64,000 bases of DNA, from assembly GCF_022814725.1 (NCBI RefSeq), contig NZ_CP093442.1, forward strand, positions 2,170,001 through 2,234,000, in the 5' to 3' direction. Each line of letters opens with the position of its first letter. The first letter of the stretch is position 1. The notes under the pieces are model-generated. The model was not told the origin of the DNA, made no database searches, and saw nothing but the letters and a program-made list of their open reading frames with translations. Made by a program: the position numbers and the translations under genes. This stretch comes from Bdellovibrio reynosensis (lineage in GTDB: Bacteria; Bdellovibrionota; Bdellovibrionia; Bdellovibrionales; Bdellovibrionaceae). Below, in pieces: positions 50,837 through 54,390 of the stretch.

Positions 50837-50945
50837 ACGCCAACCCGGACTTAGGGCTTGGCCCAAAATCCGGCTCTTTTGACAGAATTTTTAAAGTTAG
50901 CAGCCCAGAGTTTTCTTGTTATCAAATTCTAGTTATCCTTTCTTT

Positions 50946-51932
50946 GTGATTCACCATAAAAAATCCATTCTTGGGCTGGCGGTGCTGGCTTTCTTTTTTT
51001 CTATCACTCCGTTATCGGCAAAAGCTGGTATTCCAGATGTACGTTGTCAGTTGATCAATCAATGTGACAGCTCATCTCGCGGAAGCAGTGGCGGAGACGG
51101 TGGAGCCCCAAGCACTGGATCGAAAGTTAAGATCAATCCTGCGGCAGTTCCCACGGAAAAAGGTTATGGTATCGAATCGATTTTTTTTAAAAGCGAAGGG
51201 GACCTTTCGTTCGTTCGCGGGACAGGGCGCTTCGGTGCTGCAATTTCCCCGTCAAACAGTGAAGATACCTTTTTCGGCCAACCGGGTTTTGAATATTCCT
51301 TTCAAACTCAAGACCGCAAAACAGAGCGTGAAAAGTTCCCAAATAACAAGATCACTTTGGCAACAGCCTTCAATCTTTTAGAAAAAACGGGTTCAGGTCT
51401 TAACAATTACTCTGTAAACCTTGGTGTGATGGCTCGCTACAATAAGATCAGCTACGGTACTACGGGCGGTGGTGGTCTGAATGGTTCGCTTGGGGCTTTC
51501 TCGTTTGGATATTCAGTTTATAACGATCAAAGTGCAATGTCCTATGATGATGGCTTTGGCGGAAATGCTTATGACGTCGTCAAGTACCAGGTTCACACTT
51601 ACAATCTGGGTTTATTCCTGCATTCATTGTCTTTAGATTATTCAAATCTAAAAGTCCTAGTTCCAGATTATGTCGAACCGGCGTTTGCAACAGTGCAAAC
51701 TTACACTGCGACTTTATCTACGAAAAGAGCCATCTTCACTCTGTCTCAACGAGTGGAGGAATCTCCAACCATGGCTTATAACTATGAAACCAAACAGATG
51801 GAGAATAAAAGCGTCAAAATTGAATACTTTGGCGGAGTCCGTTTCGGCGTTACGAAGAACATCATGCTTGGCGCACTTTACAATTACTACCTGTTACGAG
51901 AGTTTTCTCTTTCAACGACGCTGTACTTTTAA
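50946..51932 (+). CDS. Predicted outer-membrane beta-barrel protein
   Basis: A ~328-residue secreted protein. After a signal peptide (hydrophobic core ending TPLSAKA) comes a short Ser/Gly-rich stretch, then repeated amphipathic beta-strands with alternating aromatic residues (for example NYSVNLGVMARYNKISYG, HTYNLGLFLHSLSLDYS), ending in a terminal strand FSLSTTLYF with the C-terminal Phe typical of BamA-inserted barrels. Start is uncertain: GTG at 50946 gives a normal signal peptide, TTG at 50916 is open too. No family recognised. Confidence 0.7.
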   Translation: MIHHKKSILGLAVLAFFFSITPLSAKAGIPDVRCQLINQCDSSSRGSSGGDGGAPSTGSKVKINPAAVPTEKGYGIESIFFKSEGDLSFVRGTGRFGAAISPSNSEDTFFGQPGFEYSFQTQDRKTEREKFPNNKITLATAFNLLEKTGSGLNNYSVNLGVMARYNKISYGTTGGGGLNGSLGAFSFGYSVYNDQSAMSYDDGFGGNAYDVVKYQVHTYNLGLFLHSLSLDYSNLKVLVPDYVEPAFATVQTYTATLSTKRAIFTLSQRVEESPTMAYNYETKQMENKSVKIEYFGGVRFGVTKNIMLGALYNYYLLREFSLSTTLYF

Positions 51933-52012
51933 TACCGTATTCCGCGACAGTTCATGAATCCTGAGCCGGTTAACCACTTTGCGATTAACACACAGGCACC
52001 GATTTTTATGTC

Positions 52013-52060
52013 AATTTTACAGTGATTTCGCTGTCTTTTTTGAATTTTACGGTAATTCGC
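52013..52060 (+). promoter_or_regulatory. Paired direct repeats upstream of the di-iron operon
   Basis: AATTTTACAGTGATTTCGC and AATTTTACGGTAATTCGC begin 30 bases apart, close to three helical turns, 45-90 bases before the start of the di-iron gene. The spacing suggests two sites for one regulator on the same DNA face. No regulator is assigned. Confidence 0.35.
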
Positions 52061-52104: not shown

Positions 52105-53442
52105 ATGGCAAGCTTTACTGATTCAATCGCAAATCTTATTTCGCTCGTAGTTCAAACTCCCCACTTGGAATCTGCATGGTTAAATACGCTTTCACATATG
52201 GAGCATTTAGCGGCAGAACAAATCATGGGTAACATCTCTAAGTCGACCCCAAAAGAATACATTCCAGAGATTCAAAACCACGCTGATGATGAATACCGTC
52301 ACCGTGATGTGATCTTAAACTTACGTCCCCATGCAGAGCCGTTAAACGAATCTTATCGCCTGCTTCGCCAAAGACTTAGCAACATCGCTGAGTCCTTCGT
52401 GATGGGATATTTCGCCAATCCAGTATTGGTTCAAGCTTCATCTCGATTCACAGCTTATGTTCACGGCGCTATCACTATCGAACAGTTCCCTTTCCAAATT
52501 TATTCAGTGTATATCGATGGCACCCGCGATCCAAAAATCCGCGAGGCCATGAAACAAGTTTTGTCTGAAGAAAATGCCCATATCGCTTTAGGAAGAAAGT
52601 TCCGCGATTCTTTACCAGCTGAAGATCAAATTTCTTTGCAACAGCTTCAAGCCATTGAAAAAGACATGTGCTTAAAAATGGTTCTTAGAATGACTGACTT
52701 GGTACAAGAATTCATCGACGCCGATGAAAAGAACTTAGCTGATCTAAAACCAAGTTCGCAGCTAGTAGCGATGATCTCGGACCGTCCTTATGCAACATAC
52801 GCTTGGACTTATGCTTTAGCTAACGGCGAAGAAACCGCTGCACGACACATGCAAAGAATCTTCAACGATCGCAACATCCCGCAACCGCCTTCTATGCAAG
52901 AACACGTTGATGATGAAATCCGTCATACACAGATGTTACAACGTTGCATCCTTTTGGATCGCCGCGTGTATTCAAAAACGGACGTCTATAAACAGCTTGA
53001 AAAGTCGATGATCCGCGCTTCCAACAGATATCTGCTAGGTTATTTCAGTGCGCTTATGAAAGAAATCAAAGAGCCTGAAATGCTTTATCTTTACGGCGCT
53101 TGGGGCTTAGAGATGAGAGTATTTAAACACTACTCTGAAATTCAACGCACTACTGATAACATGAGCCTAGCCCACACCATCGCTGTCATCCTTAACGATG
53201 AAGCTGAACATACAAAAATGGTGAATAACAACCTGACAGAGAAAAACTACTTCGATCCTGAAATTCTGAAGTTCGTAAAACAGATCGAAGAAGAACAGTT
53301 TGAAAAATTCTGCGCGCAAGGCGTTCATTTAATTGTTGAAGCCGAGGCAGCAGGAAGTTTCGTTCCTCCATATAAAGTTGTAGAAAACCAAGTAAACTCA
53401 ACACCGACTTTGGCATCTTCCCCAGTTATGGAGCTGCAATAA
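52105..53442 (+). CDS. Tandem di-iron ferritin-like protein
   Basis: A 445-residue soluble protein made of two ferritin-like halves, each with a full set of di-iron ligands in the E..ExxH..E..ExxH order. First half: Glu33, Glu63-His66 (DDEYRH), Glu126, Glu156-His159 (EENAH). Second half: Glu242/243, Glu271-His274 (DDEIRH), Glu336, Glu366-His369 (DEAEH). Both sites look intact. Such sites serve oxygenases, N-oxygenases, desaturases or ferroxidases. Its stop overlaps the start of a FabD-like acyltransferase (TAATG), suggesting a biosynthetic rather than storage role. No named family recognised. Confidence 0.82.
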   Translation: MASFTDSIANLISLVVQTPHLESAWLNTLSHMEHLAAEQIMGNISKSTPKEYIPEIQNHADDEYRHRDVILNLRPHAEPLNESYRLLRQRLSNIAESFVMGYFANPVLVQASSRFTAYVHGAITIEQFPFQIYSVYIDGTRDPKIREAMKQVLSEENAHIALGRKFRDSLPAEDQISLQQLQAIEKDMCLKMVLRMTDLVQEFIDADEKNLADLKPSSQLVAMISDRPYATYAWTYALANGEETAARHMQRIFNDRNIPQPPSMQEHVDDEIRHTQMLQRCILLDRRVYSKTDVYKQLEKSMIRASNRYLLGYFSALMKEIKEPEMLYLYGAWGLEMRVFKHYSEIQRTTDNMSLAHTIAVILNDEAEHTKMVNNNLTEKNYFDPEILKFVKQIEEEQFEKFCAQGVHLIVEAEAAGSFVPPYKVVENQVNSTPTLASSPVMELQ

Positions 53443-54356
53443 TGTCCGTTGCTTTTATTTTTCCTGGGTTAAATTCGTTGATGCGAAAATCAGATCGCGC
53501 GCGATTCCTTCACCTTCCAGAGGTGCAGGATTACTTTGCCCGCGCTGAAAACGTCATTAGTGACCGCTTTAATAAGAAATTTGATTTTAAAGAATTCCTA
53601 GAGCTGCCCGCTGAAGAAATCTATTCTTTAAAAAACATCAGTTTAGCTGCTGTGGCTATCTGTTCTATTCAGTCAGGCGTAGCGCAAAGATTAAAAGATA
53701 AAGTCGGTGAACCTGATTGGGTTATGGGTTGTTCACTGGGTGACCTAGCTCGCGCTGTATTCGCAGGAGCATATGCTTTTGAAGACGCCGTTTTTAATCA
53801 CATCTGGTTCACGCAAAGAATCGATGGTATCGACCAAATCGGTAAAAACATCGGTGTTCTAGCACCAAAGGGCGAAGTTTTCGGTGCAGAGGACTTTGCG
53901 TGGTTTGATGAAACCGCTGTGGATGTTTCTTGTCTTACACCAAGATTTTTAAACATTGGTGGCCGCTATGCTGACCTTAACAAGGTTGAAGAGCGCGCGA
54001 AGGAAAAGAACTGGAATGTTATCACTATTCTAGAATACCCTGCGCACTCTCGTTACATCTTGCCTTACGTGCAAGCGGTTGAAAGTGATTTTCATGAAGT
54101 GAAAGCGTTTAAACCGAAGATTTCGGTTTTCTCAAGCCTAAGCACCCAACCATTGGAAGATCCCGAACTTATTAAGCAGGAATTCCTATTAAGCATCACT
54201 CGCCCTATTCATTGGTCACAAGCGGTGCAACAGTTAGTAAATGATAAGAACATTAAACAGTTCATTAACATCGGCCCTTGCCGAAGTTTGTCGGGCTTAA
54301 TGCGCGATATTCCTGTGCAAGTTGAAACAAAAGAAGCTTTTGAAATTTTAGCGTAA
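53442..54356 (+). CDS. FabD-like acyltransferase
   Basis: A 304-residue protein of the malonyl/acyl-CoA:ACP transacylase fold. It starts FIFPGLNS as FabD does with FPGQGS; the nucleophile is Ser98 in MGCSLGDLA, and His202 in EYPAHSRYI is the partner. A C-terminal block, FINIGPCRSLSGLMR, matches the FabD end. The Arg that holds the malonyl carboxylate in FabD (in a LRG motif) is not at the matching place here (FEDAVFNHIWFTQR), so the acyl group may be another one. It overlaps the di-iron gene and a terminator follows at once. Confidence 0.82.
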   Translation: MSVAFIFPGLNSLMRKSDRARFLHLPEVQDYFARAENVISDRFNKKFDFKEFLELPAEEIYSLKNISLAAVAICSIQSGVAQRLKDKVGEPDWVMGCSLGDLARAVFAGAYAFEDAVFNHIWFTQRIDGIDQIGKNIGVLAPKGEVFGAEDFAWFDETAVDVSCLTPRFLNIGGRYADLNKVEERAKEKNWNVITILEYPAHSRYILPYVQAVESDFHEVKAFKPKISVFSSLSTQPLEDPELIKQEFLLSITRPIHWSQAVQQLVNDKNIKQFINIGPCRSLSGLMRDIPVQVETKEAFEILA

Positions 54357-54357
54357 T

Positions 54358-54390
54358 AAAAAAGGCTCTAGTTTCGCTAGAGCCTTTTCT
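54358..54390. terminator. Bidirectional terminator
   Basis: AAAAGGCTCTAG / CTAGAGCCTTTT with a five-base TTTCG loop, between the convergent FabD-like and helicase genes. Confidence 0.92.

What the first reader, a model, noticed from the sequence alone, without database searches (positions are those of the whole stretch)
52105..54356. Double di-iron protein coupled to a FabD-like acyltransferase without the malonyl Arg
Seen: one protein with two complete E/ExxH di-iron sites in tandem, its stop overlapping the start of an acyltransferase with Ser98/His202 but no Arg at the malonyl-binding place. Paired regulatory repeats precede and a terminator follows. Known: di-iron proteins of this kind oxidise acyl or amine groups, and FabD folds load carriers. 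Inference: an undescribed pathway in which an acyl group other than malonyl is loaded and then oxidised. No carrier protein is adjacent.
Basis: partly seen in the sequence, partly recalled or inferred. Interest (0 to 1): 0.65.

Follow-up and report, generated by a model that had tools for sequence, protein, structure and literature searches.

The report
Tandem di-iron oxygenase with FabD-like acyltransferase
Two overlapping genes in Bdellovibrio-type bacteria encode a doubled iron enzyme, related to enzymes that oxidise fatty chains, and a partner that handles an acyl group other than malonyl; they are always found together, so they probably form an undescribed two-step fatty-acyl modification.

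Summary
Window 52105-53442 encodes a 445-aa protein with two homologous ferritin-like domains, each with a complete E..ExxH..E..ExxH site. Its stop overlaps by one base an acyltransferase (AT; 53442-54356) with Ser98 and His202 but Phe123 at the FabD Arg117 place and no oxyanion Gln.

In 369 genomes of the phylum the pair occurs in 21, in seven genera of three families. The genes are adjacent in 20; in the 21st both are cut by contig ends. Neighbouring genes change, so the pair is the unit.

Site 1 is invariant in all 16 proteins compared. Site 2 is kept in Bdellovibrio and one distant relative, and lost in at least three other lineages. The nearest folds are aldehyde deformylating oxygenase and MiaE. 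Single-domain cousins sit beside bioA/bioD in 26 of 30 loci, the context and ligand spacing of the acyl-cleaving oxygenase BioE. Bdellovibrio genomes lack bioB, so the pair is not for biotin. Several encode only one ACP (the FAS-II one).

Best reading: domain 1 oxidises a fatty-acyl chain on AcpP or CoA, and the AT transfers or hydrolyses it. Substrate and product are unknown. The 'regulatory repeats' are not conserved; the terminator is real.

The parts
52105..53442 (+). Tandem ferritin-like di-iron protein, 445 aa (P0001)
52105..52719 (+). Domain 1 (residues 1-205), di-iron site E33/E63/H66/E126/E156/H159, plus domain-1-specific invariant His120
   Evidence: Site invariant in 16 of 16 pair-associated proteins; VIA-align Z 16.7 to an ADO-activity protein, 16.4 to MiaE
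52720..53358 (+). Domain 2 (residues 206-418), di-iron site E242/E271/H274/E336/E366/H369
   Evidence: Complete in the Bdellovibrio proteins and L067; lost in L068-L074
53442..54356 (+). FabD-like acyltransferase, 304 aa (P0002): Ser98, His202, Phe123 in place of the malonyl Arg
   Evidence: PF00698 1.2e-12; TIGR00128 71.8 bits, cut-off 260.9; VIA-align Z 31 to FabD; residue table
54360..54388 (+). Intrinsic-terminator-like hairpin after the pair, between it and a convergent DEAD-box helicase-like gene
52006..52057 (+). Two copies of a 22-nt direct repeat (52006-52027, 52036-52057); first copy overlaps a terminator-like hairpin (52019-52034)
   Evidence: not conserved in relatives

Best explanation
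The pair is a two-protein fatty-acyl modification module. Domain 1 of the tandem protein is a ferritin-like di-iron oxygenase of the ADO/BioE kind: a long acyl chain, held as a thioester on the FAS-II acyl carrier protein or on CoA, enters a hydrophobic bundle and is oxidised (hydroxylated, desaturated or cleaved) with O2 and electrons. Domain 2 is an ancient duplicate that keeps its own site in Bdellovibrio but is dispensable elsewhere. The co-translated FabD-fold protein forms an acyl-Ser98 enzyme with the non-malonyl acyl group and moves it to or from the carrier. Shown by computation: anatomy, conservation, co-inheritance, fold, absence of malonyl-specific residues, absence of bioB in the genus, a single ACP in some carriers. 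Inferred: acyl substrate, carrier, order of steps, chemistry.
For: Pair present in 21 of 369 genomes: adjacent in 20, and in G338 both genes run off contig ends; stop and start overlap or nearly abut; mirror-tree r 0.88 between domain 1 and AT. Site 1 invariant in 16 of 16. Best structural matches are ADO and MiaE, Z 15-17 over about 175 residues, above Dps/bacterioferritin at about 13; ADO is also the top profile hit, weak at E 0.002. Single-domain homologues lie beside bioA and/or bioD in 26 of 30 loci (bioA and bioD over curated cut-offs), and nearly all have the 27/3/../30/3 ligand spacing published for BioE (PMC12915131). Pair genomes G006, G018, G009 and G351 have a single PF00550 hit. 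A true FabD with Arg exists separately in all ten genomes tested. In G198/G207 a Coq4 gene follows the AT, and in G075 a FabA/FabZ-like gene precedes the pair.
Against: No assay exists. The link to ADO/BioE is remote: about 15% identity in structure alignments, Foldseek E-values above 0.1, and no BioE sequence could be compared directly. The AT has also lost the oxyanion-hole and other active-site Gln residues of FabD, so it might not transfer at all. Middling Z values are common for helical bundles.
Confidence: 0.55

Rival explanations
1. The AT-like protein is an acyl hydrolase: it cleaves the oxidised (or mis-oxidised) acyl group off the carrier instead of transferring it, so the pair releases a free oxidised fatty acid or edits the carrier.
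For: Absence of the malonyl Arg is called diagnostic of acyl hydrolases within trans-AT PKS systems (PMC11775670). PksD aligns at Z 28.8, rmsd 2.8, against 31.1 for FabD. The residue before the catalytic Ser is Cys or Val, not the conserved His.
Against: Acyl hydrolases usually carry Gln or His at the Arg place and keep the oxyanion Gln/His (PMC11775670); here the residues are Phe and Leu. There is no PKS next to the pair.
Confidence: 0.25
2. The tandem protein is a stress protein (ferroxidase, rubrerythrin-like peroxidase or iron store) and the AT is only a passenger.
For: Pfam Rubrerythrin passes its cut-off (27 against 22.8 bits); ferritin-like fold.
Against: Strict pairing with the AT across three families; Dps and bacterioferritin match less well than ADO and MiaE; no rubredoxin domain; one site is lost while the AT is kept.
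Confidence: 0.1
3. The protein is an amine or amino-acid N-oxygenase in a small natural-product pathway, with the AT acylating the product.
For: A YcgG gene and a DUF1989 gene adjoin the pair in four Bdellovibrio genomes, in two different gene orders. YcgG is in 9 of 12 pair-bearing and 1 of 12 pair-less genomes (p 0.003), DUF1989 in 7 of 12 and 0 of 12 (p 0.005), not corrected for relatedness.
Against: The pair exists without either in three Bdellovibrio genomes (G006, G010, G011). AetD, PolF and HrmI match at lower Z (12-13) than ADO.
Confidence: 0.08
4. The pair makes pimeloyl-ACP for biotin, as BioE does.
For: Homology to single-domain proteins in biotin operons.
Against: No bioB over the cut-off in any of 24 Bdellovibrio genomes or in most other pair carriers. 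G072 has both the pair and a biotin operon with its own single-domain protein, though that genome is scored 9% contaminated.
Confidence: 0.02

Closest known systems
Aldehyde deformylating oxygenase (ADO, TIGR04059/PF11266)
   Same: Ferritin-like bundle with E/ExxH/E/ExxH site; best structural match of domain 1 (Z about 15-17); weak profile similarity over helices 3-4
   Different: Single domain, works with an acyl-ACP reductase; sequence far below the family cut-off; here tandem and paired with an AT
BioE (ferritin-like di-iron oxygenase of biotin synthesis, PMC12915131)
   Same: Ligand set with 30 residues between the third and fourth Glu; single-domain cousins in this phylum lie in biotin operons; BioE acts on acyl-ACP/CoA
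   Different: BioE is single-domain and serves biotin; the pair's carriers mostly lack bioB; first spacing is 30 or 29 rather than 27
FabD / malonyl-CoA:ACP transacylase (TIGR00128)
   Same: Fold (Z 31), Ser nucleophile, catalytic His, C-terminal GP..L motif
   Different: No Arg117, no oxyanion Gln, no TQPA motif, no Gln at the FabD Gln250 place; a true FabD is encoded elsewhere in the same genome
PksD-type trans-acting acyl hydrolase; VinK non-malonyl AT
   Same: FabD fold handling acyl groups other than malonyl
   Different: No PKS context; active-site residues differ from those reported for PksD
MiaE tRNA hydroxylase
   Same: Structural match of domain 1, Z 16.4
   Different: 15% identity; unrelated context

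Membership tests
Ferritin-like di-iron carboxylate proteins (superfamily) | Four-helix bundle with E, ExxH, E, ExxH ligands | tested here: met
   metal content itself not testable here
Aldehyde deformylating oxygenase | Score over the curated TIGR04059 or PF11266 cut-off | tested here: not met
   15 against 222.65 bits; PF11266 only in distant homologues and below cut-off
BioE | Place in a biotin operon / genome able to finish biotin synthesis | tested here: not met
   No bioB over cut-off in the genus; no bio genes seen beside the pair
BioE | Over 40% identity to E. meningoseptica BioE (criterion in PMC12915131) | not tested
   No BioE sequence was at hand
FabD (malonyl transacylase) | Arg at the malonyl-carboxylate position | tested here: not met
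   Phe123 or Tyr in all pair-linked ATs examined; Arg in ten FabDs
FabD (malonyl transacylase) | Score over TIGR00128 cut-off | tested here: not met
   71.8 against 260.9 bits
Acyl_transf_1 superfamily (PF00698) | Fold, GxSxG Ser, catalytic His | tested here: met
   PF00698 48.4 against 32.7 bits; Z 31 to FabD; Ser98, His202
trans-AT acyl hydrolase (PksD type) | Gln/His at the Arg place and Gln/His in the oxyanion hole | tested here: not met
   Phe123 and Leu10 (criterion from PMC11775670)
trans-AT acyl hydrolase (PksD type) | Thioester hydrolysis | not testable with these tools
   Needs an assay
Rubrerythrin | Rubrerythrin domain with a rubredoxin domain | tested here: not met
   Pfam Rubrerythrin 27 bits against 22.8, but no rubredoxin family hit

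The most novel reading that the evidence does not exclude
A previously undescribed oxygen-dependent fatty-acyl tailoring route in predatory bacteria and relatives: a tandem-duplicated BioE/ADO-type oxygenase modifies FAS-II acyl-ACP, and a dedicated non-malonyl FabD-fold enzyme moves the modified chain to a new acceptor, giving an oxidised lipid or metabolite.
Probability: 0.4. Interest if true: 0.7.

Novelty: new variant of a known kind. Interest (0 to 1): 0.52.

Why it matters
Both parts belong to known superfamilies, but the strictly co-inherited combination and the doubled site were not described in the papers searched. If the pair oxidises FAS-II acyl chains, it would add a second branch, beside biotin synthesis, to the BioE-like enzymes, and an example of a FabD-fold enzyme working outside malonyl loading in genomes with a single ACP. 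The pattern of second-site loss gives natural variants for asking what a duplicated di-iron domain is for. It can be tested directly in genetically tractable B. bacteriovorus.

Tried and rejected
Biotin role: no bioB in the genus. Dedicated carrier: several carriers have only one ACP. Upstream repeats as a conserved operator: not found in relatives or before the second AT copy. Upstream outer-membrane-protein-like gene as a partner: 9 of 12 against 4 of 12 genomes, p 0.10, mostly unlinked. Mobile-element carriage: no plasmid or viral relatives. Sequence search of solved structures with the single protein gave only a chance hit. Foldseek with the two-domain model gave no match below E 0.17, so the fold assignment rests on VIA-align and profile hits. 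Papers: no description of the pair or of the HD100 genes.

Full report
CHECKING THE OBSERVATION. The first (52105-53442, 445 aa) and second (53442-54356, 304 aa) overlap by one base. Each half of the first protein carries E, ExxH, E, ExxH: E33, E63, H66, E126, E156, H159 and E242, E271, H274, E336, E366, H369. The two halves are homologous to each other (score 130 against 32 +/- 5 for shuffles), so this is an internal duplication, not chance motifs. The second protein keeps Ser98 and His202, but the column of FabD Arg117 holds Phe123. Housekeeping FabDs from ten genomes, the window's own among them, have Arg, FPGQGSQ and NTQP in the same alignment, while the pair's ATs have Phe (Tyr once), FPGLN and N-I/V/L-S. 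One caution: several relatives have Arg, Lys or His one residue earlier (position 122), which is Trp in the window, so a shifted basic residue is present in some members but not conserved.

REGULATORY CLAIMS. A 13-pair terminator-like hairpin lies at 54360-54388. The upstream repeat is a single 22-nt direct repeat, 77% identical. It is not found before the pair in the other genomes nor before the second AT copy, and its first copy overlaps a terminator-like hairpin. It should not be counted as evidence of regulation.

IS THE PAIR REAL? In 369 genomes of the phylum the tandem di-iron protein is found in 21 (a 22nd hit, G238, is a single-domain protein). All 21 also have the strong AT match, in seven genera of three families. 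The genes are adjacent in 20; in G338 both genes are cut by contig ends. Overlap or near-abutment of stop and start is the rule. Flanking genes differ between lineages, so the two genes are the conserved unit. Within the genus, 12 of 24 genomes have it. Distances in the two proteins correlate (r 0.88).

ONE SITE MATTERS MORE. Site 1 and an additional His120 are invariant in all 16 proteins compared. Site 2 is complete in the Bdellovibrio proteins and in L067 (an Oligoflexia MAG, G351), but its ligands are gone in L068, L069, L071-L073 and L070/L074. Because the retained second domains of Bdellovibrio and L067 group together (98% bootstrap), the simplest reading is an ancient duplication followed by at least three losses of site 2; transfer between lineages is not excluded.

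WHAT THE DI-IRON PROTEIN IS. Pfam gives Rubrerythrin just over its cut-off and COQ7 and DUF455 below theirs. A profile of the family finds aldehyde deformylating oxygenases as its best solved structures, weakly (E 0.002). The AlphaFold2 model (pLDDT 83.8, pTM 0.80) aligns domain 1 best to ADO-activity proteins (Z 16.7, rmsd 2.8, 178 residues) and MiaE (Z 16.4), ahead of Dps and bacterioferritin (about 13). Foldseek alone gave nothing significant. So domain 1 looks like a substrate-oxidising member, not a store, with moderate confidence.

THE BIOTIN COUSINS. A weak single-domain match (G238) led to about 30 single-domain homologues across the phylum. In 26 of 30 loci a bioA- and/or bioD-like gene is adjacent (bioA and bioD confirmed over curated cut-offs in two loci). 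Nearly all show ligand spacings of about 27/3/52-66/30/3, against 27/3/69/30/3 for the published BioE residues E26, E53, H56, E125, E155, H158 (PMC12915131). BioE is reported to cleave long-chain acyl-ACP or acyl-CoA to the pimeloyl thioester. These cousins are therefore probable BioE-type enzymes, though no BioE sequence was compared. The pair is a separate branch, and its carriers mostly lack bioB, so it does not serve biotin. G072 has both, but is scored 9% contaminated.

THE CARRIER. PF00550 finds only one ACP in G006, G018, G009 and G351, all pair-bearing; it lies about 1 kb from fabD. If a carrier protein is used there, it must be AcpP, unless the substrate rides on CoA. The window's genome has a second, weak PF00550 hit and a second, solitary AT copy, 64% identical, at G000:C1:9183-10085.

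THE AT. The model (pLDDT 82.3) is a full FabD fold (Z 31.1), with VinK (29.8) and the acyl hydrolase PksD (28.8) close behind. PMC11775670 states that lack of the Arg is diagnostic of acyl hydrolases in trans-AT PKS systems, but these usually have Gln/His there and a Gln/His oxyanion residue; this protein has Phe and Leu. Transfer and hydrolysis both remain open.

ACCESSORY LINKS. YqcI_YcgG and DUF1989 genes adjoin the pair in four genomes in two gene orders and are enriched in pair-bearing Bdellovibrio, but three pair-bearing genomes lack both and relatedness was not corrected. A Coq4 gene follows the AT in G198 and G207, and a FabA-like gene precedes the pair in G075.

VERDICT. The best-supported mechanism is oxidation of a fatty-acyl thioester by domain 1, with the AT handling the non-malonyl acyl group before or after. 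Substrate, product and order are not shown. Both proteins are members of known superfamilies in a combination not found in the papers searched.

Noticed in passing
L096-L125 (for example L096:1501-2178, L114:1486-2034): Single-domain di-iron homologues beside bioA/bioD in about 30 Bdellovibrionota genomes; probable BioE-type pimeloyl-forming enzymes, outside the families listed in PMC12915131.
   Followed up: partly
L030:9132-10088 (G000:C1:9183-10085): A second, solitary copy of the AT (64% identical) in the window's own genome, without a di-iron partner.
   Followed up: partly
L040:10675-11671 (G001): The AT of this genome is split into two overlapping frames, a broken gene or an assembly error; the di-iron gene is intact.
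   Followed up: no
L032:8232-9532; L039:11585-12890: YqcI_YcgG and DUF1989 genes next to the pair in two gene orders, enriched in pair-bearing Bdellovibrio genomes.
   Followed up: partly
L074:10966-11631; L070:7505-8194: A Coq4-family gene overlaps the end of the AT gene in two genomes of another genus.
   Followed up: partly
L042:8618-9613; L043:8668-9630: A second type of solitary FabD-like protein (GCSLGD motif, no malonyl Arg) in Bdellovibrio genomes without the pair.
   Followed up: no
window 50916-51932: Outer-membrane-protein-like gene without a Pfam match, next to the pair here and (in another orientation) in three relatives, elsewhere in others.
   Followed up: yes
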